A program made the translations under genes and the position numbers. Below are positions 25,286 to 37,316 of a stretch of DNA of 64,000 bases, piece after piece. Origin of the DNA: Bacteroidota bacterium (GTDB lineage Bacteria > Bacteroidota > Bacteroidia > Chitinophagales > Chitinophagaceae); NCBI GenBank assembly GCA_018267965.1, contig JAFDXK010000006.1:62001-126000 (forward strand). Reading direction: 5' to 3'. Under the pieces are notes generated by a model. It was not told where the DNA came from. It saw only the letters and a list, made by a program, of their open reading frames with translations, and made no database searches. Position 1 is the first letter of the stretch; each line of letters opens with the position of its first letter.

Positions 25286-26353
25286 ATGCGCATACTAACT
25301 ATTATTTGTCTTTTATGTTTTTCCCTCAGCTCGGGGGCACAACACAATAATAATCCTATAGCCAATTTCAACAGCGATAGTTATTGGCAAAAAACAAGGC
25401 TTATTCATCATTTGCCTGCTTATGCCATTACGAATAATGATACTCCTATGGTTGTTATCAGCAATCGCAAACTGACAGATGACAGTATACGTTACATGAG
25501 TGAGTCGAGATGTGAAAGTGGCGTATTGTATTTTTTCGTTTTTACACATAATGGTATTTGGAATGTTTTGCCTGTTCCCTCACTGGAAGTAGCAATACAG
25601 TATATGCCTGACAAAAACCGCGATTGGGTAGCCTATACCGAAGGAATGGGCAAGTTGTTTACTACTGATTTGAATAGAGGCCTATCTCTTGCAGCTCAAT
25701 ACGATGTCAATGTCATCATGTTTGATTATCCGAGCATTACAACTACTAAAAAATCATTGGGCAATTATTTCTTTGCCATGGGTAATGCACACAAAGCTTA
25801 CCGATATTTTCTACCTGCAATAGGTACTATTAAAGACCTGCAGACAGCCGGCAAAATGGGGACCGGTAAACTTACACTGTTTTATCATAGTATGGGCAAT
25901 CATGTGGCGAGAGGAATTGTAAAACACCATAAGCTGGATGCCATTAATGATGTTGTTTGGGTTGACAACCTGGTATTGAATGCTCCGTGTGTGCCCCGCC
26001 GTGGCCACAAACGCTGGATCAACCAGATAAAATTTGCAAAGCGTATATACATTAATTACAACAATAACGATTTCACGCTTGGTGGCGCATACCTTGTTAG
26101 TAAGAAATTGCAATTGGGACATAGACCGATACGCAACATCAGTCATGAAGCTAATGTAAACTATATCAACTTCAACACCTTGTGTGGACAAGGACATAGT
26201 AACTTCCTCACGCTTACAGGTGTTCAGGTGTGCAAGCCGCGCTCCAGAGATCTTTATAGTGCACAGCTACACGGTAATGATGTGAATGTTCACGATACAA
26301 CTTTGTTTACACAAAGCCATTTCAAACATATAGGTTGGGAGCTGAAGCCTTAG
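25286..26353 (+). CDS. Secreted alpha/beta-hydrolase-like protein
   Basis: Protein of 355 residues with a signal peptide ending SSGAQ. The central region reads VNVIMFDYPS then KLTLFYHSMGNHVARG, an alpha/beta-hydrolase nucleophile elbow (Ser202) in which the first glycine of GxSxG is Tyr. Later segments VWVDNLVLNAPCVP and RIYINYNNNDFTL fit strands before the acid, and CGQGHSNFL could supply the His. This resembles DUF900-type hydrolases; substrate unknown. Its stop overlaps the stop of kdsB, tail to tail, by four bases. Confidence 0.65.
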   Translation: MRILTIICLLCFSLSSGAQHNNNPIANFNSDSYWQKTRLIHHLPAYAITNNDTPMVVISNRKLTDDSIRYMSESRCESGVLYFFVFTHNGIWNVLPVPSLEVAIQYMPDKNRDWVAYTEGMGKLFTTDLNRGLSLAAQYDVNVIMFDYPSITTTKKSLGNYFFAMGNAHKAYRYFLPAIGTIKDLQTAGKMGTGKLTLFYHSMGNHVARGIVKHHKLDAINDVVWVDNLVLNAPCVPRRGHKRWINQIKFAKRIYINYNNNDFTLGGAYLVSKKLQLGHRPIRNISHEANVNYINFNTLCGQGHSNFLTLTGVQVCKPRSRDLYSAQLHGNDVNVHDTTLFTQSHFKHIGWELKP

Positions 26354-27093
26354 GCGATATTCATCAATCGCAACACCTTCTCTACATCTTCAGGCGTATC
26401 GATGCAGTGACTGTCGAAATGAGTAACAGCGCATTTTATCCTGAAGCCTTTTTCTAACCAGCGCAGTTGTTCCAATGATTCGGCTTTCTCTAAAGAAGAT
26501 ACCGGCAGTTTACAAACCTGCTCCAATACATCGGCACGGTAGGCATACATACCCACATGACGGTAATACGGGTGATGTGTATGCCAGTCTTTTTGTTCTA
26601 CTCCTTTAATATAAGGTATCACCATACGGCTGAAGTACATCCCTTCCATATTATCGTTCAGCACTACCTTCACTTCGCCCATATCAAATAATACTTCATG
26701 GCTATCAACAGGAATAATAAGTGTAGCTAATTCTGTTGTGCCATCTTTCAGCACACTGCAAAGCGTATCTATTTGTGATGGGTCGATAAATGGCTCATCG
26801 CCCTGTATATTGATAATGTATTGATAATCCCCTGCAACCTGCTGCAACGCATCCCAACAGCGGTCAGTACCACTTGGGTGATTTTCTGCTGTCATCACTA
26901 CCTCACCGCCAAACGACACAACATGCTCAGCTATACGCACATCATCTGTAGCTACCACTACTTTATCCAGCGAACCACACTTCGTAGCTTGTTCATACAC
27001 ACGCTGTATCATACTCTTGCCTTTGATGTCTATCAAAGGTTTGCCGGGGTAACGGGTCGAGGCGTATCGTGCAGGAATGATTCCAACTATCAT
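26350..27093 (-). CDS. kdsB: CMP-Kdo (or CMP-8-amino-Kdo) synthetase
   Basis: Activates Kdo-type sugars with CTP for transfer to lipid A. The 247-residue protein begins IVGIIPARYASTRYPGKPL, the nucleotidyltransferase signature, and contains NIQGDEPFIDP (metal-binding Asp), HVGMYAYRADVL and a C-terminal CIDTPEDVEKV. Because kdnA and kdnB lie in the same gene run, the physiological substrate may be 8-amino-Kdo, as in Shewanella; sequence alone cannot decide this. The start codon shares one base with the stop of the phosphatase gene (TAATG), so translation is coupled. Last gene of the Kdo run. Confidence 0.93.
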   Translation of the reverse strand: MIVGIIPARYASTRYPGKPLIDIKGKSMIQRVYEQATKCGSLDKVVVATDDVRIAEHVVSFGGEVVMTAENHPSGTDRCWDALQQVAGDYQYIINIQGDEPFIDPSQIDTLCSVLKDGTTELATLIIPVDSHEVLFDMGEVKVVLNDNMEGMYFSRMVIPYIKGVEQKDWHTHHPYYRHVGMYAYRADVLEQVCKLPVSSLEKAESLEQLRWLEKGFRIKCAVTHFDSHCIDTPEDVEKVLRLMNIA

Positions 27094-27788
27094 TATTCTT
27101 CTATAATTTTTGAATCCTTACTACTATAAAATGATGGCATTTGCTGATTTCTCATTTCAATATAACTGCGATAGGTCTCTGTATAGTTCATACGATTATC
27201 TATCGTTTCGTTGTATTTACCACTTAAACCTATTAACAACTCTAACGCTTCACGTACTGCGCCATTACCACCTTCACACACTGTGAGGTAATCTACCATG
27301 TTATGTTGTACAGCATATTCCACCAGCAACGGATTACAGGCACGCGGTATCATAATACGTAAACCCACAGCAGCAGCTACTGAAAAATCCAATACATCAT
27401 CAAACACAAAACATACTTCTTCAGGCTTTATACCATGATGCTCGCAAATATGATTCAAGGCTTCAGCCTTAAACTTAATACCGCTATACACGCCATGAAA
27501 GCTCTCACGCTTCGCCAGCGTCCATGCCATTGCATTACGTTCGCCTGATATGATAGCCACAATCGGCAATTCATTATTGCGCAGGTAATGATTAAAACGC
27601 ACCAGGTTAGTACCCATGGCATCTACCTCACTGAATGAGCTTGTACCATTTTCGTCCTTCACACCATTATTGAATACGCCATCCCAATCAAACACAAATG
27701 CCTTGATACCTGATAGCTTTGCTGCTATCTCTTCAGCAGGGGTTATAAAACTGCCTTTAAAATGACTGACTACTGTATTGATATCCAT
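27093..27788 (-). CDS. KdsC-like HAD phosphatase (Kdo 8-phosphate phosphatase)
   Basis: Predicted to remove phosphate from Kdo 8-phosphate. The 231-residue protein is a C0-type HAD without a cap: motif I FVFDWDGVFNNG (nucleophile and acid Asp), motif II IISGE, a Lys in IKFKAE, and motif IV FVFDDVLDF (Asp pair). The DGVxxxG sequence and the order match KdsC. It carries about 40 extra N-terminal and C-terminal residues beyond a minimal KdsC (about 170-190 residues), including a hydrophilic tail. Position between the transaldolase-CBS gene and kdsB supports the role. An AT-rich inverted repeat precedes it. Confidence 0.83.
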   Translation of the reverse strand: MDINTVVSHFKGSFITPAEEIAAKLSGIKAFVFDWDGVFNNGVKDENGTSSFSEVDAMGTNLVRFNHYLRNNELPIVAIISGERNAMAWTLAKRESFHGVYSGIKFKAEALNHICEHHGIKPEEVCFVFDDVLDFSVAAAVGLRIMIPRACNPLLVEYAVQHNMVDYLTVCEGGNGAVREALELLIGLSGKYNETIDNRMNYTETYRSYIEMRNQQMPSFYSSKDSKIIEE

Positions 27789-27889: not shown

Positions 27890-28903
27890 TTAAAGCCCTT
27901 TAAGGTCTTGTATATCCAGCATACCTACAGGTTTACCGTTTTCAGTAACCAGTATGGTATCTACATTTGTTTTCTTGAATATTGCAGCGGCATCATTCAG
28001 TAATGCATTCGCATCTACACTAATAGGCGCCTTGTATTCCATATCACCCATTTTCTTGCCCAGTATATGCTCACCATCTTTTTGCAACAAACGGCGGATA
28101 TCGCCATCAGTGAATACACCCTTCACAGTACCATCAGCATTAGTAACCGTTACTGCGCCAAAACCATAACCAGTCATTTTCACCAATGCACTTTGCAGTG
28201 TATCATCAGCAGACACAACAGGGTTCACGCCATTAGCCGCTTCTTTCACACGTACGGTCATCATACGCGTATCTACAAGGAACTGCTCTGTACCTACGGT
28301 GGTAAAGTTATTTTCAGTTAAGCCTTTCAATACTTTCAACGGAACAGTGATGGTATGCACACCTATATTGATAGCGTTACGCACGTGTTCTGCATGGCGT
28401 ACCGAGCTGAACATGATTTTGGTATCATAACCATAACCTTCTACAGCATCCACACATTGTTCAACAAGCGCCAATGCATCGTGTCCCTGGTCTTGCAAAC
28501 GGCCTACCAATGGACAAACGTAAGTAGCGCCTGCATGCATAGCCATGTAAGCCTGTTGCAGTGTATATACAAGGTGCACATTCACCAGCAAACCTTCTTT
28601 ACGCAGCATATAGCAAGCACGAACACCTTCGAGAGACACAGGTATTTTAAATACGGTCTTCTTAGGATCTAGTCCTAAATCCAGTTGACGCTTGGCTTCT
28701 TTCAGCACATCTTCAGCTGTATTACCCAATGCTTCTATCTGCAACACAGGCACCATTTTGCTCAACTTCACTATTGTGCCGTCGATATCAGTGATACCTT
28801 CACGCTGCATAAAAGTAGGCGTAGTGGTCAACCCGTTTAAGAAACCCAGTTTAAAACCTTCTTCAATCTCCTTGAGATTGGCGGAGTCTAAGTATAATTC
28901 CAT
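27890..28903 (-). CDS. Transaldolase/FSA-like barrel fused to a KdsD-type CBS pair
   Basis: Protein of 337 residues. Residues 1-~212 form a fructose-6-phosphate-aldolase/TalC-like barrel: it starts MELYLDSAN, with Asp6 and Thr26, the Schiff-base lysine is Lys86 in FKIPVSLEG, and ATYVCPLVGRLQDQG matches the FSA active-site strand. Residues ~215-337 are two CBS motifs (GVFTDGDIRRLL; TILVTENGKPVGMLDIQDL) that closely resemble the tail of KdsD arabinose-5-phosphate isomerase. Compared with E. coli FSA as I recall it, Asn28 is Thr, Gln59 is Glu57, Thr109 is His110, Ala129 is Cys130 and Tyr131 is Leu132. It lies 21 bases after kdsA. No KdsD is present in the run, so I infer that this protein supplies or controls arabinose 5-phosphate. 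Domain calls are firm; the reaction is a hypothesis. Confidence 0.85.
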   Translation of the reverse strand: MELYLDSANLKEIEEGFKLGFLNGLTTTPTFMQREGITDIDGTIVKLSKMVPVLQIEALGNTAEDVLKEAKRQLDLGLDPKKTVFKIPVSLEGVRACYMLRKEGLLVNVHLVYTLQQAYMAMHAGATYVCPLVGRLQDQGHDALALVEQCVDAVEGYGYDTKIMFSSVRHAEHVRNAINIGVHTITVPLKVLKGLTENNFTTVGTEQFLVDTRMMTVRVKEAANGVNPVVSADDTLQSALVKMTGYGFGAVTVTNADGTVKGVFTDGDIRRLLQKDGEHILGKKMGDMEYKAPISVDANALLNDAAAIFKKTNVDTILVTENGKPVGMLDIQDLKGL

Positions 28904-28924: not shown

Positions 28925-29758
28925 TTATTTCCTGTATTTCACCTCAAGGTTATGAAGCTCAATTAAGGGTTTTAAATATTCTTCCAAATCATATACACAA
29001 AGCTGGCTGGCAGCATCACAGAGGGCTTTTTCTGGCTCAGGGTGCGTTTCTATAAATACACCATCTACGCCTGCAGCTACACCTGCCCTACCCAATACAG
29101 GCAGGAATTCGCGTGCACCACCCTTGGCATCGGCACTTGGTATACCATATTTGCGTATGGAGTGTGTAATATCAAACACAACAGGATAACCTAGTTGTGC
29201 CATATGATAGAATGCACGAGGGTCAACCACAAGGTCATTGTACCCCATAGTATAACCGCGTTCTGTCAGTATTATTTTATCATTACCTGCATCCACACAT
29301 TTACCTACAGGGTGTTTCATGTTTTCAGGTGCTAAAAACTGTCCGTGCTTGATATTGATTACAGCACCCGTTGCAGCCGCAGCTTTCAACAAACCCGATT
29401 GCATACACAGGTATGCAGGTATCTGTAACACATCGCACACCTCGGCAGCAGGTGCTGCCTGGTCAGGGTAATGTATATCTGTCAGCACAGGGAAACCAAA
29501 TTGTTCTTTAACCTTAGCCAATATCTTCACGCCTTTATCCAATCCCGGACCGTCATAATATTTCAGGCTGCTGCGGTTGTCTTTGGTGAATGATGATTTG
29601 TAGATGATCTGTATGTTCAACTTCTCACCTACTTTTTTCAGCGTTTCAGCTGTTTTCATCATCGTGTTTTCATCTTCTATCACACATGGGCCTGAGATGA
29701 GGAACAACTCATCCGCGCCGCACTCTATATTGCCAACTTTAATCTTCTTTGCGCTCAT
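28925..29758 (-). CDS. kdsA: Kdo 8-phosphate synthase, metal-dependent type
   Basis: Condenses arabinose 5-phosphate with phosphoenolpyruvate to Kdo 8-phosphate in the cytoplasm. The 277-residue TIM barrel shows LISGPCVIEDE, IYKSSFTKDNRSS, VLTDIHYPDQ, IKHGQFLAPENM, FDITHSIR and FIETHPEPE, all family motifs. Cys25 in GPC marks the metal-dependent class; the metal-independent enzymes have Asn there. It starts three bases after the kdnB stop. Its sugar substrate is the expected product of the neighbouring transaldolase-CBS protein if that acts as a KdsD substitute. Confidence 0.95.
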   Translation of the reverse strand: MSAKKIKVGNIECGADELFLISGPCVIEDENTMMKTAETLKKVGEKLNIQIIYKSSFTKDNRSSLKYYDGPGLDKGVKILAKVKEQFGFPVLTDIHYPDQAAPAAEVCDVLQIPAYLCMQSGLLKAAAATGAVINIKHGQFLAPENMKHPVGKCVDAGNDKIILTERGYTMGYNDLVVDPRAFYHMAQLGYPVVFDITHSIRKYGIPSADAKGGAREFLPVLGRAGVAAGVDGVFIETHPEPEKALCDAASQLCVYDLEEYLKPLIELHNLEVKYRK

Positions 29759-29761
29759 AAA

Positions 29762-30841
29762 TTACATTCGCTTGTAAAGCTCTTTAATAGTATCAATTGT
29801 TATTTTCTCTTTCCAGTTTGTACCAATGGCATGGTTCCACATGTGGTGCAAATTATATGCCACATGCGCCATTGCCGTTATCGTTTCATCGCTCCAATCC
29901 TTGCTCAATCCCTGTGGCAATGTGATGTTGTGCTTCTTCAACATGGTTTTAAACTCTGCTACTCCCTCTCCGTAGTAATCATGCAAATGCTGGAACGCCA
30001 CACAGTTGGCATAACAGTGTTTTTCACCTAGTATTTTTGAAAGGCCATAGGATAAGGCATGACAAACACCTACTTCAGAATAGGTCAAACTCAATCCACC
30101 CATCAGCGACGCTACCATTAGTTTATCATCATTTTCAGCGGTTTGACCAGCAACATCGCCCAGATAGATATCACGGCAAAGTTTCAATGCCTGTTCGGCA
30201 TAGGCATGGCTGAATGCATTATTCAGCTGACCGTTTTCAGATTCTATACAATGTATGTACGTGTCCATACCGGTATAGAACCATTTATCGCGCGGTACGC
30301 TTGCTATCAGTTCAGGGTCAAGTATTACCTGGTTAAAAACTGTCCAGTCACATTTCAATCCCAGTTTTTTTTCAGGGCCTGTAAGTACTGCGGTCATAGA
30401 GACCTCCGCACCCGTACCTGAAATAGTTGGCACACCTAAGTGATATATACCAGGTTTTTTGATCAGGTTCAAACCCTGGTATAACGTAGACGAACCCTCG
30501 TTGGTAAACATCAGCGATAATGCTTTGGCAATATCCATAATACTGCCACCGCCTATACCTACTACACCCGATGGCAATCCTTTACTACCCAGTATCTGGT
30601 CGCGAAGGCCATCAATTTGTTCTGTAGTTGGTTCGCTCGGGTCTACATCTATATACTCAATCACATCTCCCACTTTTGTAGGAATACGTTTTGCGAGTTC
30701 ACTATTCAGAAAGTAGTTATCTACAAGAAACACCATGAAACCCGCATTTTCTTTACGTACAGGCTCCAGTATACTATCCATAGTATCGAACGCACCGCGC
30801 CCGTATACTACTTTCTCAATGTTCTTAAAATTCTTATGCAT
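29762..30841 (-). CDS. kdnB: Kdo 8-oxidase (iron-type alcohol dehydrogenase fold)
   Basis: Predicted to oxidise C8 of Kdo to the aldehyde, the first step toward 8-amino-Kdo. The 359-residue protein has the group III alcohol dehydrogenase NAD site GIGGGSIMDIAKA, PTISGTGAEVS, and metal ligands in GMDTYIHCIES (Asp, His), GVCHALSYG (His) and HHMWNHAIG (His). These and the adjacency to kdnA match the characterised Shewanella KdnB. It overlaps kdnA by eight bases and is followed by kdsA after three, so translation is tightly coupled. Confidence 0.9.
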   Translation of the reverse strand: MHKNFKNIEKVVYGRGAFDTMDSILEPVRKENAGFMVFLVDNYFLNSELAKRIPTKVGDVIEYIDVDPSEPTTEQIDGLRDQILGSKGLPSGVVGIGGGSIMDIAKALSLMFTNEGSSTLYQGLNLIKKPGIYHLGVPTISGTGAEVSMTAVLTGPEKKLGLKCDWTVFNQVILDPELIASVPRDKWFYTGMDTYIHCIESENGQLNNAFSHAYAEQALKLCRDIYLGDVAGQTAENDDKLMVASLMGGLSLTYSEVGVCHALSYGLSKILGEKHCYANCVAFQHLHDYYGEGVAEFKTMLKKHNITLPQGLSKDWSDETITAMAHVAYNLHHMWNHAIGTNWKEKITIDTIKELYKRM

Positions 30842-32042
30842 GTGCCGGTGCTAATGCTTTAGTAACGCTATCAGAAATTTTCGCTGCCAGTTCGCGCACT
30901 TGTTCTTCTGTCCAAGTGCAACGGATACCGAACGAAATCAAACGTCCTATCACGTTTTGTGTTTTAGGTATATCAAGATTGTTATAATCCTGCGGAGCGC
31001 CCAATATTTGTATCGGTAGTCTTGATGCAGTATCCAGATTCTTTACATGGTCCCATTGGTTGATGAAGTGATACATATTCTTAAACCAATAATCAAAACC
31101 AACAACACCATTATCATTGAACGCATCCACCACACGTTGCGCAGCTTCAGGGGTTTCCATTAATAAATTCAGAAAAGTTGCTGAGTCACCATCAGGGTCT
31201 GCAATTTTTGCAAAGCCTATACCCGGCGTTTTCGACAATAGTTCCGTCAACATTTTTTTGTGCTTGCGGTTAGCAGCCAATACCTGTGGCACGCGACGTG
31301 TTTGCGCTACTGCTACTGCTGCATTCAATTCACCTATACGGTAGTTGAAACCCAACACAGGGTGTGGCTCCATACCTCGCTTGGCACCTATGTGAGAGTG
31401 CCCGTGGTCTGAATAGTATTCTGCTTTCTTGTACGTCTCTTCGTCATTAGTAACTAGTATACCGCCTTCGCCTGCTGTTGCTATCTTGAAGAAGTCGAAA
31501 GAGAATGCGCCAGCTTTACCCCAAAGACCTGTAGCCTTACCTTTGTACGATGCTGCGAATGCTTGTCCGGCATCATCCACCAATGTCAGGTTGTGTTCAT
31601 TTATCACCTGCATGATGCTATCCATGTCGCCCATACCACCACACATATGCACCAGGCAAACAGCCTTAGTTTTTGGCGTGATGGCTTTCTTAATGCCCTC
31701 AGCACTCAAGCACAATGTTTCGTCTATTTCTGCAAACACAGGTAGCGCACCAATGAAAAGTACCGCTTCGATAGTTGCGATAAATGTAAACGGCGGAACG
31801 ATCACTTCATCACCCGCACCTATACCTGCAGCTGCAAGCGCAGTGATAACCGCAGTAGAACCGCTGCTGGTTGCCAGTGCATATTTAGCGCCTGTTATTT
31901 TCTTAGCTTCTTCTTCAAATTCTTTTGCTTTCCAATGGCCATTGCGTTGTGCATCGTGTCCGTAACGAAAAAGGACACCTGTTTCCAACACATCATTGAC
32001 TTCCTTGCGTTCTTCTGCACCAAACAGTTCGGTACCGGGCAT
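30834..32042 (-). CDS. kdnA: 8-amino-3,8-dideoxy-manno-octulosonate transaminase
   Basis: PLP-dependent DegT-family aminotransferase that aminates 8-oxo-Kdo with glutamate to give 8-amino-Kdo. The 402-residue protein matches the Shewanella KdnA sequence closely from its first residues (MPG-ELFG-EE--EV) through GAGDEVIVPPFTF, AEIDETLCLS and SDHGH-H-G. The PLP lysine is Lys186 in SFDFFKIATAGEGG. Known KdnA/KdnB products place an amine on the inner-core sugar, which lowers negative charge and contributes to polymyxin resistance in Shewanella. A -7 box in the 66-base gap upstream suggests a promoter for the kdnA-kdsB genes separate from waaA. Confidence 0.94.
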   Translation of the reverse strand: MPGTELFGAEERKEVNDVLETGVLFRYGHDAQRNGHWKAKEFEEEAKKITGAKYALATSSGSTAVITALAAAGIGAGDEVIVPPFTFIATIEAVLFIGALPVFAEIDETLCLSAEGIKKAITPKTKAVCLVHMCGGMGDMDSIMQVINEHNLTLVDDAGQAFAASYKGKATGLWGKAGAFSFDFFKIATAGEGGILVTNDEETYKKAEYYSDHGHSHIGAKRGMEPHPVLGFNYRIGELNAAVAVAQTRRVPQVLAANRKHKKMLTELLSKTPGIGFAKIADPDGDSATFLNLLMETPEAAQRVVDAFNDNGVVGFDYWFKNMYHFINQWDHVKNLDTASRLPIQILGAPQDYNNLDIPKTQNVIGRLISFGIRCTWTEEQVRELAAKISDSVTKALAPAHA

Positions 32043-32108: not shown

Positions 32109-33359
32109 TTATTTCAGTATTTCAGCAGAAATTATTCGCATTATTTTAACAGTTGCCCCTGTTTGCTGCTGCATATATGATTTTATTGCGTTTTGTATGG
32201 TTTGCAAACGATGAGAATCAGACATTAACTGTTCAAACCAACCTTTTAATTCGGCAGCATTGTTGACCGGGAATGCGTATTGATGAGCCACCATTTGATT
32301 TGCTTCTACGAACTTCTGATATGTCGGTCCAAAAAATACTGGTAGCCCAAAAATAGCCGGCTCCAGTATATTATGTATACCCCCTTTGTCAAAACCACCT
32401 CCTATATAAGCCAACTCTCCATACCTGTATAATGATGACAACATACCTATATTGTCTATCAACACTACCCTATGAGCGGTATGTTTTTCGGGTAATTCTG
32501 AATAACATACAACATCATTACGGAAAAGTTCCTTTAACTGGTTAATGTGTTTATTATCTATTTCATGAGGAGCGAGTACCAACTTCCAGTCATCGGGCAT
32601 GGATGATAAACACTCTTTAAGAACTCTTTCATCCCCTGGCCATGTACTCCCTGCTATCAATAACTTATGCTTGTCTTTATACTGTTGAATTAAAGGAAAT
32701 TCTTTTGCCTGTTTAGCAATTTCGGCTACCCTGTCGTAACGGGTATCACCCGATACTATTACCCCGTTTGTCAACCCTATCTTTTCCAACAACTTCACTG
32801 AAGCATCTTCCTGCACAAAAAGATAATTGAAACACCTCAACATTTTTCTAAACAGCCCACCATAAGGCTGAAAGAATATCTGCGATGACCTGAACGTAGC
32901 AGATATCAATATCGTTGGTATATTATTTTTCTTTAGCTGGTTGAGATAATGATACCAGAATTCATACTTCACGAATATGGCAAGTGATGGGTTGATGAGT
33001 TTTATAAAACGTTTAGCGTTCAACACACCATCCATCGGCAGATAGAAAACATAATCTGCCAGTTCATAATTCTTTCTTATCTCATAACCTGATGGCGAAA
33101 AGAATGTGAGTACAATTTTATACTCAGGATGTTCTTTTTTCAGTGCTTCGATTATCGGACGCCCTTGCTCAAACTCACCAAGCGATGAAGCATGTATCCA
33201 GATACGTTTTTCTGTATTACCTGATACAGCGTTGGCTATTTTATCAAATATGCCTTGCCTTCCCTGTACACCTAGTTTTATCTTAGAATTGAACAATGCA
33301 GCTATCCTCATGCCTATGCGCATGAGAAACAGAAAGAGGTTATAAAATAATAACTGCAC
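32109..33359 (-). CDS. waaA: Kdo transferase (lipid A Kdo/Kdo8N transferase)
   Basis: Transfers Kdo or 8-amino-Kdo from its CMP form to lipid A precursor at the inner membrane. The 416-residue protein begins with a membrane-anchoring helix (FYNLFLFLMRIGMRIAALF), then IWIHASSLGEFEQGRP with the catalytic Glu62, VFYLPMD, FVKYEFWYHYL, and the C-terminal GT-B half with AGSTWPGDE, APHEID and GGGFDKGGIHNILEPA. The start is GTG at 33359; the first ATG (33323) would remove most of the anchor helix. It follows the DUF3857 gene by 11 bases. Confidence 0.93.
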   Translation of the reverse strand: MQLLFYNLFLFLMRIGMRIAALFNSKIKLGVQGRQGIFDKIANAVSGNTEKRIWIHASSLGEFEQGRPIIEALKKEHPEYKIVLTFFSPSGYEIRKNYELADYVFYLPMDGVLNAKRFIKLINPSLAIFVKYEFWYHYLNQLKKNNIPTILISATFRSSQIFFQPYGGLFRKMLRCFNYLFVQEDASVKLLEKIGLTNGVIVSGDTRYDRVAEIAKQAKEFPLIQQYKDKHKLLIAGSTWPGDERVLKECLSSMPDDWKLVLAPHEIDNKHINQLKELFRNDVVCYSELPEKHTAHRVVLIDNIGMLSSLYRYGELAYIGGGFDKGGIHNILEPAIFGLPVFFGPTYQKFVEANQMVAHQYAFPVNNAAELKGWFEQLMSDSHRLQTIQNAIKSYMQQQTGATVKIMRIISAEILK

Positions 33360-33370
33360 GAATTAAATCA

Positions 33371-35290
33371 TTACTGTTTTAAAAAAACAACACTATTATC
33401 ACCAGACCTCAAAGATACCTGTTTAAGAAATTTCAAATACTCAGCGTACAAATATGCTTCATATTCTCCTTCATATAGTTTTAAAGTCTTAGTAACGACA
33501 AGCTTATTAACATTGTCAAAGGCTGCTTTACTTGTAAATGTTCCAAATCGATAATCAATTTGTACATCTTTCGGCATCATCTCTGATTTATATATCCCTT
33601 CAAAAGAATAAGCAATTGTATCAACAACCTGGTACGACCTTGACAAGTAAAAAGATTTTTCTCTTTTTTCATTCGAAGGCATCTTAGGTAACGGTAATTC
33701 CATTATAAAGGGACTCACAAACACCCTATCTCCAGATGTATTTATTTTAGCATCGCCTTCAAAAACAATCGATTCGTATTGTATAGGAATTTTTGATACT
33801 ACCGTTGAACTGGGTTCATATTTAATAAGCTTAAATGATGAAATATCAATATCGCTGTTAAACTTACTTTCAATATCCTTTTTCGATGCACTTTTCAGGA
33901 AATACTCCTCAGCTAGCCAAAATTCTGCTTTTCTTGTAAACCAACCTTTGCCAGTAAGTCCTCCTGACGCGTTTACTTGTATTTCCAACTTTCTTATTAA
34001 CAGATTATTATCAACAGAATATTTAGGCGTCCGTACCAATATCCCGCCATCTGGTGTAATCAACAGTGCATCTCTGTTATCTGTAAATTCCGACAAATAA
34101 CCTGCATTAAGATTGTCAGACGTACATTCAATCCAAGTGGTATCATTATTAACTGGAACACAGAGTATAACATGATTAAACATATCAACCGGAAAGTCTT
34201 TATCAACAACCCTTTTAAAGTCATTACCGCCATATATCAAGGCTGCATACGGTGTAAAGCCTGCCTCTTTAAGTATCGCCATCATATAATTGCTCAAAGC
34301 CTTGCAATCACCGTACCCATATTGAATCACAGACTTAGCATCCTTGGTTTGCCATCCTCCAATACCTAGCTGCACACTTATATATCTTGTATTCTCTTTC
34401 AAGTAATCATAAAGTAAATCGATTCTTTTTCTGTATAATTTACATGTATCAATAATGGAATGAATAACTCTTTTATTATCGTCTGTAAGATTGTCTCTGT
34501 TCTTGTTCAGTTCATAAAAAAATTTACCATAATCCTTCCAATTTGTCATATTGCCTGACAAACCACCCATTTCAACTTTATCAACACAAAGAGCAACAGC
34601 GGGAAAGTAAAATGTTTGCCTGGTAGCTAGCAGATCTTTTTCTTTTGCCGGAATATTATTTACATTAAGAGACATTCTTTTTCTACCTTCTGTAATTGTC
34701 TCATTGGCTTTTACATCAATATTATATAGCTTATATTTCAATGATAAATCATTTGGGTATTCTATTTCAAAACTCGAATTCTGTACTGCGCAATTATAAT
34801 CATCCTGAAATGCATATTCATTCACAAAATAAAATGAGGAATACTGCTTTTCTATTTCAAATTCAACTGTATAGGGGTAATCTGCGTAATTAAAGTCATA
34901 ATACATCTTTCTAAAATCGTCAGCCATATTATGTGTATCCATAGCAGCATCATTAACATCCCGCTTTTTCATCTTTTTCACAATATTCCCATCTTTATCA
35001 TACAATCTTCCACTAATATCAGTTATTTTAAATAGGCTACTGTAGTATTCACTAAGATGTGATTCTTTATTACCCTCATCATTTAGAATTGTGATTGCGT
35101 ATTTGGCTACAACAACAATATCTGTATTAGACTTGATATTGATCTTATATTCACTGTTCCTAATAACAAGATTAGCTTTTTCTAATAGTTTTGCCGGGAT
35201 ATTTGATATGGCATACTTATAATCATGAGATGCAAAGCCAGCACTTCCAGACAAGATTACAATCAACAATGTAAAGCAAAAATTCTTCAT
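33371..35290 (-). CDS. DUF3857/transglutaminase-like exported protein with intact catalytic residues
   Basis: Protein of 639 residues with signal peptide (ending GSAGFAS). The N-terminal half is the DUF3857 beta-sandwich (AKYAITILNDEGNKES, VEFEIEKQYSSFY), followed by a transglutaminase-like domain with YGYGDCKALSNYM (Cys329) and DMFNHVIL (His373), with an Asp near residue 390 (WIECTSDN), and then a C-terminal beta domain. Such proteins are common in Bacteroidota; substrate unknown. It is paired with a homologue one base upstream, in which the cysteine is missing. Confidence 0.85.
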   Translation of the reverse strand: MKNFCFTLLIVILSGSAGFASHDYKYAISNIPAKLLEKANLVIRNSEYKINIKSNTDIVVVAKYAITILNDEGNKESHLSEYYSSLFKITDISGRLYDKDGNIVKKMKKRDVNDAAMDTHNMADDFRKMYYDFNYADYPYTVEFEIEKQYSSFYFVNEYAFQDDYNCAVQNSSFEIEYPNDLSLKYKLYNIDVKANETITEGRKRMSLNVNNIPAKEKDLLATRQTFYFPAVALCVDKVEMGGLSGNMTNWKDYGKFFYELNKNRDNLTDDNKRVIHSIIDTCKLYRKRIDLLYDYLKENTRYISVQLGIGGWQTKDAKSVIQYGYGDCKALSNYMMAILKEAGFTPYAALIYGGNDFKRVVDKDFPVDMFNHVILCVPVNNDTTWIECTSDNLNAGYLSEFTDNRDALLITPDGGILVRTPKYSVDNNLLIRKLEIQVNASGGLTGKGWFTRKAEFWLAEEYFLKSASKKDIESKFNSDIDISSFKLIKYEPSSTVVSKIPIQYESIVFEGDAKINTSGDRVFVSPFIMELPLPKMPSNEKREKSFYLSRSYQVVDTIAYSFEGIYKSEMMPKDVQIDYRFGTFTSKAAFDNVNKLVVTKTLKLYEGEYEAYLYAEYLKFLKQVSLRSGDNSVVFLKQ

Positions 35291-35291
35291 A

Positions 35292-37316
35292 CTACTTCTT
35301 ATACTTTAACACAACAATTTGAGTGATTTCTTTGTACATCTTTTCATACATCTCTTTAATATCATCATATTCCCGAGGAGCATATATACAACCCGATCTC
35401 TTAAAATTTGTATTTATACCCAATGTCCTTGTTGTACTGTCATAAGAAATCATATGCTTGAAATTAATGTCCTCCCCATAGTCCAAAATAGCAGACTTAG
35501 GGATATCTTCTGCATCAATATTTTGAGGCAAATTTGCATTAAAAACATACACGTGCTCTTCCGGGAAATCTAATTCAACAGGGGTTCTGCGCTTCATTGT
35601 CTTAAACGGCACATTTGGTATTGCTTTTACTAAGTCAGTTGATAAGTAAAAAACATCAAGTGGCTTTTCAAAGTTTTGAACGATAGTGTATTTTATTTTC
35701 AAATTAGTATCAGGATTATTTTGAAAATCCATCGACAAGCTATCTATACCAGCACCAGAATGCAGTCCCTGGGCTATTGCCTTCAATTGTCTGGTAAATT
35801 CACTGCTATCTTTTTTAACCAGGGTTCTCAATTCTCTCGATTTATTCATTCCCAAATATTCAGATATACGGACGATAAAAGATGTATCAGTAATGGAAAT
35901 CACATTTGCCATTACTACGTCCTTTTCTTTATTGTCTTTAGGCAGAATATCTATCGGATATCCCCCATCTTTATTAATTACCCTGGCGTACCCAGTATAG
36001 CAGTAATAAGGGAGCCTGCCGAAAGCATTATATTTACCTGATGCATCAAGATAATATCTAGCTGTCCCTATCTGCAACAAACAAACTGCATGATTAAATC
36101 TATCTAATAAGGGAAACTGTGGTGTGGCTTTGGGTCTGCCCTTAGTACTTAATACTAATGGCGACGCATTCAATCCAGCTTTACATAACATTTCGGTCAA
36201 TAGTAAATTAATCTCTGCTGCATTACCTTCTTTATTTTCAAAAACAAATACCATGTCTTCATGAGGAGTAATTGCAATTTCATCAATGCAATGCATCCTG
36301 CTTCTTACATACCTAAAAATTGCTTTTGCCCTGGCTAAATCATCTTGGTGAACTTTCATTATCGAATCAACGTCTCCTTTTAAAAACCTGCTACCCAACT
36401 CCAGTTGCTTGCCAAAATATTTGTACTCCCAAAGTGTTTTAGTAAACCCTTTCCATGCTTTCTGAGAACCTGCGCTGTCTACATTGCTGACGTTATAGTC
36501 AGGAGGTTGAACTTGCACGTTAATACGTTCACGATAATCATCAACATTGCCAGAATAAGGCTCCTGTGTTAATGCACTGATATTTTTTCTTACCCAAATT
36601 ATATTATTAGGCACACCTGCTCCATACTCTTCAACATTTACAATGTAAGCTTGTGCATCAGACTGTTCTGCTTCCTTTTTACTTTTAAACTCACGAAAAG
36701 TAGGCAACGCCTGACCAACAGTCACAAAAGGGAAACCCCTTGGAATACTAATTTCATATTCACTCGTTAATGTAGGATATTCATTCTGAAAATACCAAGG
36801 TCTAAAGGAAAGAGAAGCAGGAGAATATATTTGATACGAATAATCAATTATTGAACCTAAACCCACAGCAGGTAAAGCAAATTTTAATTGATATACCACA
36901 TCGTTATACCTGTTATTAAAAACAGCAGATTTTGCCATTTCTGTTTTTGTTAAAGTACCGTTCTTAAGATAGTAGGTAGTACCAGTCACATACTTAACCT
37001 TACCTTCTATTGCTGCGTTAGAATAATAATAATCCTGAATATTGGCTTCATTAATAGCATCCTCTTTCAATATCTTGATAACCCGGTGTACGGTATAAAT
37101 TTGCGCATAGTGTTCATAATTTCCTATTACTTCTCTTACTATTTCAACTGAACCTTTTTCGAAAAGCACTACTGCTGACGCATCAGAGTCAGATAAAAAC
37201 ACGTTTGTTTTAATATATTTTTTTACATACTGATTTGTGTCTTGCGCAAATAGTGAGTTGGAGCAGAAAAGTATAAATATTGTAATAATATAAAGGGCGA
37301 GGAGAGGGTATTTCAC
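35292..37316 (-). CDS. DUF3857/transglutaminase-like exported protein lacking the catalytic Cys
   Basis: Protein of 674 residues, GTG start at 37316 giving a normal signal peptide (LFCSNSLFAQ). Domain order is the same as in the following gene: DUF3857 sandwich, then a transglutaminase-like fold. Where active members read GDC/GNC, this one reads GNAAEINLL, with Ala366 in the cysteine position, while RFNHAVCLL (His) and YYLDASG (Asp) are kept. It is therefore probably non-catalytic as a transglutaminase. The one-base gap to the active homologue suggests that the pair are made together. Confidence 0.8.
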   Translation of the reverse strand: MKYPLLALYIITIFILFCSNSLFAQDTNQYVKKYIKTNVFLSDSDASAVVLFEKGSVEIVREVIGNYEHYAQIYTVHRVIKILKEDAINEANIQDYYYSNAAIEGKVKYVTGTTYYLKNGTLTKTEMAKSAVFNNRYNDVVYQLKFALPAVGLGSIIDYSYQIYSPASLSFRPWYFQNEYPTLTSEYEISIPRGFPFVTVGQALPTFREFKSKKEAEQSDAQAYIVNVEEYGAGVPNNIIWVRKNISALTQEPYSGNVDDYRERINVQVQPPDYNVSNVDSAGSQKAWKGFTKTLWEYKYFGKQLELGSRFLKGDVDSIMKVHQDDLARAKAIFRYVRSRMHCIDEIAITPHEDMVFVFENKEGNAAEINLLLTEMLCKAGLNASPLVLSTKGRPKATPQFPLLDRFNHAVCLLQIGTARYYLDASGKYNAFGRLPYYCYTGYARVINKDGGYPIDILPKDNKEKDVVMANVISITDTSFIVRISEYLGMNKSRELRTLVKKDSSEFTRQLKAIAQGLHSGAGIDSLSMDFQNNPDTNLKIKYTIVQNFEKPLDVFYLSTDLVKAIPNVPFKTMKRRTPVELDFPEEHVYVFNANLPQNIDAEDIPKSAILDYGEDINFKHMISYDSTTRTLGINTNFKRSGCIYAPREYDDIKEMYEKMYKEITQIVVLKYKK

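What the first reader, a model, noticed from the sequence alone, without database searches (positions are those of the whole stretch)
27890..28903. Transaldolase/FSA-like barrel fused to the CBS tail of KdsD in a Kdo operon that lacks kdsD
Seen: the FSA-like barrel (MELYLD start, Lys86 in FKIP) is followed by two CBS motifs (GVFTDGDIRRLL, PVGMLDIQDL) that look like the C-terminus of KdsD, and it is the next gene after kdsA. Known: KdsD is an SIS-domain isomerase with this CBS pair that makes arabinose 5-phosphate for KdsA. Inference: here the SIS domain has been replaced by a transaldolase barrel, so the protein is a new type of regulated arabinose-5-phosphate source. FSA enzymes are known to make arabinose 5-phosphate from glycolaldehyde and glyceraldehyde 3-phosphate, which makes the chemistry believable.
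Basis: partly seen in the sequence, partly recalled or inferred. Interest (0 to 1): 0.85.

Follow-up and report, generated by a model that had tools for sequence, protein, structure and literature searches.

The report
Substitute arabinose-5-phosphate enzyme in endotoxin operon
Some Bacteroidota bacteria seem to have swapped the standard first enzyme of endotoxin-sugar (Kdo) synthesis for an unrelated transaldolase-like enzyme that carries the standard enzyme's regulatory tail, which would be a new way to make an essential cell-surface building block and can be tested in one complementation experiment.

Summary
The 99.99%-complete genome has no KdsD. In 563 Bacteroidota genomes, 25 of 27 fusion carriers lack KdsD (2 have both); 417 genomes have KdsD. 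All 6 carriers of a 395-genome phylum draw have KdsA. One genome (G286) carries the same operon without the fusion and has KdsD; its KdsA nests inside the fusion-type KdsA clade. The fusion goes with KdsA rather than KdnB. The barrel keeps the lysine and phosphate-site residues, but four donor-pocket residues (N28, T110, S130, F132) read T, H, C, L in 106 of 106 fusion rows (86 distinct) and N, T, S, F in 19 of 19 ordinary transaldolases. Best reading: a non-homologous replacement of KdsD that makes arabinose 5-phosphate through a C1 imine on Lys86, with a KdsD-type regulatory tail. Whether it uses ribose 5-phosphate (favoured) or glycolaldehyde plus glyceraldehyde 3-phosphate is open. No activity has been shown.

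The parts
27890..28903 (-). TAL/FSA barrel + CBS-pair fusion, 337 aa (the proposed arabinose-5-phosphate-supplying enzyme)
   Evidence: AlphaFold2 mean pLDDT 89.6, pTM 0.61
28256..28903 (-). Barrel domain, residues 1-216, Lys86 at 28646-28648
   Evidence: Pfam TAL_FSA 3-201; Foldseek top hits 1vpx, 3r8r, T. acidophilum TAL
28508..28822 (-). Span holding four switched active-site residues: Thr28 (N in TAL), His110 (T), Cys130 (S), Leu132 (F)
   Evidence: 106 of 106 fusion rows (52 of 52) against 19 of 19 ordinary TALs
27902..28222 (-). KdsD-type CBS pair, residues 228-334
   Evidence: PDB best sequence hits are KdsD CBS pairs 4o9k and 3k2v; by fold, 3k2v, 4o9k and 3fna take ranks 1, 2, 3 and 5
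28925..29758 (-). KdsA, Kdo-8-phosphate synthase
   Evidence: TIGR01362 328.1 bits over cut-off 314; PDB 6mdy 2.8e-74
29762..30841 (-). KdnB, Kdo 8-oxidase
   Evidence: PDB 5k8c 3.7e-125
30834..32042 (-). KdnA, 8-amino-Kdo transaminase
   Evidence: PDB 5k8b 4e-125
32109..33359 (-). KdtA/WaaA, Kdo transferase
   Evidence: Pfam Glycos_transf_N
27093..27788 (-). Divergent KdsC-like HAD phosphatase
   Evidence: KdsC PRK09484 65.7 bits, below cut-off 208
26350..27093 (-). KdsB, CMP-Kdo synthetase
   Evidence: kdsB TIGR00466 216.9 bits over 155.2

Best explanation
The fusion is a non-homologous replacement for KdsD: it supplies D-arabinose 5-phosphate (A5P) to KdsA in organisms that have no SIS-type A5P isomerase. 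Lys86 forms an imine with C1 of an aldopentose 5-phosphate held by the retained phosphate site (Arg135, Ser167, Arg169), while the pocket that holds the donor in transaldolases is rebuilt (Thr28, His110, Cys130, Leu132). Within this, I favour conversion of ribose 5-phosphate to A5P (C2 epimerisation through the C1 imine, by proton transfer or by retro-aldol and re-addition), about 0.4, over net aldol addition of free glycolaldehyde to glyceraldehyde 3-phosphate, about 0.28 (listed again as the first rival); the confidence below covers both. The KdsD-type CBS pair probably carries over the end-product control of KdsD. Shown by computation: architecture, operon, absence of KdsD, anti-correlation, residue switch. 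Inferred: the reaction, its substrate and the CBS ligand.
For: Own genome: KdsA but no KdsD. 563 genomes: 27 carriers, 25 without KdsD; Fisher p about 1e-13 for the union and 6e-10 among the 289 KdsA-positive genomes of the phylum draw, relatedness ignored. All 6 carriers of that draw have KdsA. In four genera (g1, g195, g206, g28) one sampled congener has the fusion only and another KdsD only. G286 has the operon without the fusion, and has KdsD; its KdsA nests in the fusion-type clade beside G227 (97/83), so the two genes stand in for each other behind the same KdsA type. Fusion goes with KdsA, not KdnB: G329 has fusion and KdsA but no KdnB-like match at 1e-60, and 25 of 25 genomes with a KdnB-like match and no fusion have KdsD. 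Residue switch 106 of 106 rows against 0 of 19. FsaA makes A5P from glycolaldehyde and GA3P, and TalB F178Y also makes ribose 5-phosphate (PMC9947464, passages), so this fold can form both aldopentoses. Tail nearest to KdsD CBS by sequence and fold.
Against: No activity was measured. Two of 27 carriers (G497, G538) also have KdsD; in G538 it lies in a neighbourhood shared with congener G427, so it looks native. Genomes are not independent and the operon seems to move as a package, so the anti-correlation partly reflects package replacement. Fusion-type KdsA is a long-branched clade with KDNRSS in place of KANRS/T, so its substrate is not certain. G061 has KdsA but neither gene, so another route may exist. 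In 34 of 80 loci with at least 1.2 kb upstream KdsA was not found in the locus. Many residues besides the four differ between fusions and TALs, so tying the switch to the donor pocket is a choice. No coordinates were at hand; active-site geometry was not measured.
Confidence: 0.7

Rival explanations
1. FSA-like A5P aldolase: the barrel joins glycolaldehyde (donor imine on Lys86) to glyceraldehyde 3-phosphate and makes A5P directly. (A sub-case of the best explanation.)
For: FsaA does this (PMC9947464, passages). The phosphate site is kept and the donor side is altered, as expected for a shorter donor.
Against: No obvious glycolaldehyde-producing gene among the operon genes labelled (unlabelled neighbours were not examined one by one). 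The FSA proton-shuttle Tyr131 (Phe in TAL) is Leu here. PMC9947464 concludes that FsaA's affinity for glycolaldehyde is not sufficient to carry flux in vivo (passage).
Confidence: 0.28
2. Direct A5P isomerase: ribulose 5-phosphate is isomerised through an enediol with Lys86, His110 and Glu57 as acid-base residues, a convergent KdsD.
For: The new invariant His110 lies at the position of FSA Thr109, which helps hold the catalytic water (PMC13259622, passages). Ribulose 5-phosphate is KdsD's own substrate.
Against: Carbon spacing from imine carbon to phosphate fits aldopentose C1-C5 (as F6P C2-C6), not ribulose C2-C5 (my inference). Lys86 is strictly kept (106 of 106), which suggests imine chemistry.
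Confidence: 0.12
3. The fusion is not the A5P source; another SIS protein such as GlmS moonlights as A5P isomerase and the fusion is a CBS-regulated transaldolase.
For: Most eukaryotic GFATs tested complement an E. coli API mutant; T. cruzi GFAT and the unoptimised L. major gene did not (PMC11301363, section 5). The own genome has a GlmS-like and a PGI/PMI-like protein.
Against: E. coli kdsD gutQ mutants are A5P auxotrophs although E. coli has GlmS (recalled). An ordinary transaldolase-type gene exists elsewhere in the genome. The residues of the transaldolase donor pocket are replaced. It would not explain why the fusion stands in for KdsD.
Confidence: 0.12
4. The package makes a different octulosonate: fusion-type KdsA uses another aldose phosphate supplied by the barrel.
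For: Fusion-type KdsA is a divergent clade with KDNRSS.
Against: The window KdsA passes the curated Kdo8P-synthase cut-off. KdsA of G286, within this clade, occurs in a genome with KdsD, without a fusion match, and with one KdsA match.
Confidence: 0.07

Closest known systems
KdsD/KpsF/GutQ arabinose-5-phosphate isomerases (SIS + CBS pair)
   Same: CBS-pair tail is closest to theirs by sequence and fold; place in the Kdo pathway
   Different: No SIS domain; barrel of another fold and chemistry
Class I transaldolase / fructose-6-phosphate aldolase (TalC/FSA, Pfam PF00923)
   Same: Fold, Schiff-base lysine, Asp6, Glu57, Asn108 and phosphate-site residues
   Different: N28T, T110H, S130C, F132L in every fusion examined; CBS tail; Kdo operon; the window protein scores below the NCBIfam cut-offs of all FSA/TAL models it matches
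KdnA/KdnB 8-amino-Kdo pathway (PDB 5k8b, 5k8c; of Shewanella, recalled)
   Same: The window operon holds clear KdnA and KdnB
   Different: 25 of 25 genomes with a KdnB-like match (E 1e-60 or better) and no fusion have KdsD instead
TalB F178Y / FsaA synthetic A5P aldolases (PMC9947464, passages)
   Same: Transaldolase-fold enzyme that makes A5P
   Different: Engineered or promiscuous use outside Kdo synthesis; position 132 is Tyr there, Leu here

Membership tests
KdsD (A5P isomerase) | SIS domain (PF01380) | tested here: not met
   Pfam finds TAL_FSA and CBS only
KdsD (A5P isomerase) | C-terminal CBS pair of KdsD type | tested here: met
KdsD (A5P isomerase) | Ribulose 5-phosphate to A5P activity | not testable with these tools
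   needs enzyme assay
TAL/FSA (PF00923) | Barrel fold with Schiff-base lysine position | tested here: met
   116.9 bits over cut-off 27; fold match; Lys86 in 106 of 106 rows
TAL/FSA (PF00923) | Donor-pocket residues N28, T110, S/A130, F/Y132 | tested here: not met
   T, H, C, L in 106 of 106 fusion rows; N, T, S, F in 19 of 19 TALs
Fructose-6-phosphate aldolase equivalog TIGR00875 | Score over curated cut-off 245.95 | tested here: not met
   163.7 bits
8-amino-Kdo operon | KdnA and KdnB with KdsA and KdsB | tested here: met
KdsA (Kdo8P synthase) | Over curated TIGR01362 cut-off | tested here: met
   328.1 against 314

The most novel reading that the evidence does not exclude
A transaldolase-fold ribose-5-phosphate 2-epimerase (imine on C1 of an aldopentose phosphate), end-product-regulated through a KdsD-type CBS pair, has replaced an essential lipopolysaccharide enzyme and spreads between lineages with its own KdsA: a second, non-homologous origin of arabinose 5-phosphate and a new reaction for the transaldolase fold.
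Probability: 0.4. Interest if true: 0.88.

Novelty: new variant of a known kind. Interest (0 to 1): 0.74.

Why it matters
A5P synthesis is the entry to Kdo and normally rests on one enzyme type. A non-homologous replacement would fill a pathway hole in carriers of this operon, show a domain swap in which a regulatory tail was kept while the catalytic fold changed, and give synthetic biology a natural dedicated A5P-forming transaldolase fold; PMC9947464 (passage) names finding a better A5P aldolase as a way forward. It can be decided with one complementation test and one coupled assay.

Tried and rejected
Rejected: (1) artefact or chimera - recurs in 27 of 563 genomes and in 80 of 80 loci kept of 491 relatives. 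(2) KdsD hidden elsewhere in the own genome - SIS and KpsF searches find none. (3) Fusion as an 8-amino-Kdo enzyme - G329 has it without a KdnB-like match, and 25 of 25 genomes with such a match and no fusion have KdsD. (4) Ordinary transaldolase - an ordinary one exists and the pocket differs. (5) Spread on plasmids - 166 PLSDB records have hits, none covers 80% of the query.

Exceptions checked: of the 5 KdsA-positive genomes without either gene (G061, G237, G309, G339, G394), G309 has a KdsD-type CBS fragment that stops where its contig seems to end, G237's KdsA is near a contig end, G339 and G394 are 91% and 66% complete (one search's draw); these are possible, not proven, explanations. 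G061 stays unexplained; I looked at its KdsA neighbours by eye only and saw no candidate. Not tested for lack of searches: whether G497 and G538 have a second KdsA; KdsA in the 9 family-draw genomes with neither gene and in G028 and G037; other phyla; the other 411 of 491 genome contigs relatives.

Dropped before counts: 6 of the 12 hits were barrel-only (212-222 residues) and not counted as fusions. KdsD was counted at E 1e-40 or better; that is 21 genomes (20 over the cut-off plus G035, a partial match), which gives 417; one search used 416 and repeats it with 417. The table was tallied by hand. The TAL control holds the 19 ORFs that passed a motif filter, from 25 loci given. The fusion set lacks L116 and L250, whose frame lacked the start motif; L116 is among the 52. 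The KdsA tree has 31 rows of 32 loci given (L095 fell out by the length filter) and treekit warns of long branches. Paper searches gave nothing useful.

Full report
OBSERVATION. The ORF at 27890-28903 is on the minus strand and encodes 337 aa. Residues 3-201 match Pfam TAL_FSA (1.4e-33) and two stretches near the C-terminus match CBS. The tail scores best against KdsD, KpsF and GutQ models. With the fusion's own tail as query, 35 KdsD proteins score 25.8-64.2 bits; four other CBS proteins score 37.1 (the G309 fragment, itself KdsD-like), 16.6 (own IMP dehydrogenase), 11.3 and 7.1 (own CBS-nucleotidyltransferase). AlphaFold2 gives a barrel followed by a CBS pair (mean pLDDT 89.6, pTM 0.61); Foldseek's best PDB matches are the T. 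maritima, B. subtilis and T. acidophilum transaldolases. A model of the tail alone (pLDDT 87.2; its alignment includes four KdsD tails) matches KdsD CBS pairs 3k2v and 4o9k first. The title of 4o9k is cut off after 'in com'; I recall that its ligand is CMP-Kdo, which no call shows.

OPERON. Order on the minus strand: KdtA, KdnA, KdnB, KdsA, fusion, KdsC-like HAD, KdsB. Gaps: KdsA to fusion 21 nt, fusion to HAD 101 nt; KdnA/KdnB and HAD/KdsB overlap. In 80 loci from genome contigs (the best 80 of 491 relatives, 79-94% identity), 70 hold at least one other gene of this operon: HAD in 58, KdsB in 56, KdsA in 45 (same strand in 45 of 45), KdnB in 40, KdnA in 39, KdtA in 23; no KdsD was found in the 80 loci. 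Some loci are cut by contig ends. Most record titles name Bacteroidota (Chitinophagaceae, Flavipsychrobacter, Taibaiella and others); one MAG is named Azovibrio and one only 'bacterium'.

KdsD. The own genome's three SIS hits are two in a GlmS-like protein and one in a 345-aa PGI/PMI-like protein (names mine). Among 39 relatives, 12 carry the fusion and 20 carry KdsD over its cut-off, none both; within the own genus 11 of 15 carry the fusion and the other 4 carry KdsD. In a phylum draw of 395, 6 carry the full-length fusion, 283 KdsD (E 1e-40 or better) and 289 KdsA; all 6 fusion genomes have KdsA, none has KdsD. In a family draw of 152, 14 carry the fusion, 131 KdsD, 2 both (G497, G538) and 9 neither. 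Union: 563 genomes, fusion only 25, both 2, KdsD only 415, neither 121; Fisher p about 1e-13, not corrected for relatedness (with 414 and 122). Of 20 genomes queried with the window KdsA, 16 have it; G026, G032, G036 and G038, which lack fusion and KdsD, lack KdsA too, while G061, G237 and G309, picked because they have KdsA without either gene, have it again, and G035 has KdsA with a partial KdsD.

CONTRARY CASES. G497 and G538 hold the fusion within the operon and KdsD elsewhere. Three of G538's KdsD neighbours match those of its congener G427 at 69-88% identity, so this KdsD is likely native. I read both as acquisitions beside a retained native enzyme, which is inference. Five KdsA genomes in the phylum draw have neither gene; four have possible assembly explanations and G061 does not.

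NATURAL SWAP. The window KdsA is 73-85% identical to KdsA of six fusion genomes from other genera (three of its family, two of other families of the class, one outside the class), but 45-48% identical to KdsA of the four KdsD-bearing members of its own genus. The tree (31 rows) puts fusion-type KdsA in one clade (100/100) on a long branch. G286 carries KdsB-HAD-KdsA-KdnB-KdnA at 45-76% identity to the window, in the same order, without the fusion, and has a KdsD; its KdsA nests in the fusion clade beside G227 (97/83). So behind the same KdsA type either KdsD or the fusion occurs. This is the strongest argument that they do the same job and that this KdsA uses A5P.

ACTIVE SITE. In 106 fusion rows (86 distinct sequences; 52 of 52) against 19 ordinary TALs: kept are Asp6, Thr26, Glu57, Lys86, Asn108, Arg135, Ser167, Arg169; switched in every row are Asn28 to Thr, Thr110 to His, Ser130 to Cys, Phe132 to Leu, and Ser30 to Thr. 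Other positions also differ consistently (for example 31, 55, 56, 58, 83, 113, 164-166). PMC13259622 (passages) describes the FSA equivalents Asp6, Asn28, Gln59, Thr109 and Ala129 as clustering around the donor pocket, Gln59-Thr109-Tyr131 as holders of the catalytic water, and selects Ser30, Ser166 and Lys168 in connection with a putative phosphate-recognition region. Thus the phosphate side is largely kept and the donor and water side is rebuilt.

MECHANISM (inference). From imine carbon to phosphate-bearing carbon, F6P (C2-C6) and an aldopentose 5-phosphate (C1-C5) have the same spacing; ribulose 5-phosphate does not. An aldopentose with its C1 on Lys86 would fit the old site minus the C1 hydroxymethyl, and the donor side is what changed. 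That fits both the glycolaldehyde + GA3P aldolase and a ribose-5-phosphate 2-epimerase. PMC9947464 (passages) states that FsaA makes only A5P from glycolaldehyde and GA3P while TalB F178Y also makes ribose 5-phosphate, so the fold can form both epimers. No obvious glycolaldehyde source travels with the gene, hence my preference for pentose phosphate.

LITERATURE. Searches of the held open-access library for a transaldolase-CBS or aldolase A5P enzyme in Kdo synthesis found none: 0 papers; 7 papers; passages of PMC9947464 and PMC8208507 seen, others as listing; 3 papers, listing; 6 papers; PMC11301363 passages and section 5 seen, others as listing; 1 paper, PMC10448790, passages; 69 papers, 20 seen as listing. 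Most subscription papers are not held, so this is not proof of absence. PMC11301363 shows eukaryotic GFATs rescuing an E. coli API mutant, which keeps GlmS moonlighting open as a rival. For P0001 no NCBIfam model of June 2026 reaches its cut-off; the other 10 fusions scanned match the same leading families, their cut-off status was not shown.

VERDICT. The role as A5P source is well supported by genomics (about 0.8, imine and enediol readings together); imine chemistry is likely (0.7); the substrate is open.

Noticed in passing
window 29762-32042: KdnB and KdnA: an 8-amino-Kdo operon in this Bacteroidota genome; KdnB-like matches (E 1e-60 or better) occur in 30 of 395 phylum genomes.
   Followed up: partly
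window 28925-29758: Fusion-type KdsA is a long-branched clade with KDNRSS (15 of 15 rows) where the other KdsA rows that fit the search pattern have KANRS/T; possible substrate or regulatory change.
   Followed up: partly
L222:7644-12603: G286: same operon order without the fusion, in a genome with KdsD; natural swap.
   Followed up: yes
L239:9399-10226: G061 has KdsA but neither KdsD nor the fusion although listed as 100% complete; a third A5P route or a gap.
   Followed up: partly
L269:10176-10595: A PIN-domain ORF lies between KdsA and the fusion in G432; in 16 of 45 loci with KdsA this gap is 516-772 nt.
   Followed up: no
L268:3285-4186: KdsA of G443 appears as two ORFs; left as it is.
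   Followed up: no
L102: A record titled Azovibrio restrictus MAG carries a 92% identical fusion; probably mislabelled or mixed.
   Followed up: no
window 33371-37316: Two adjacent DUF3857 proteins lie just upstream of KdtA on the same strand.
   Followed up: no
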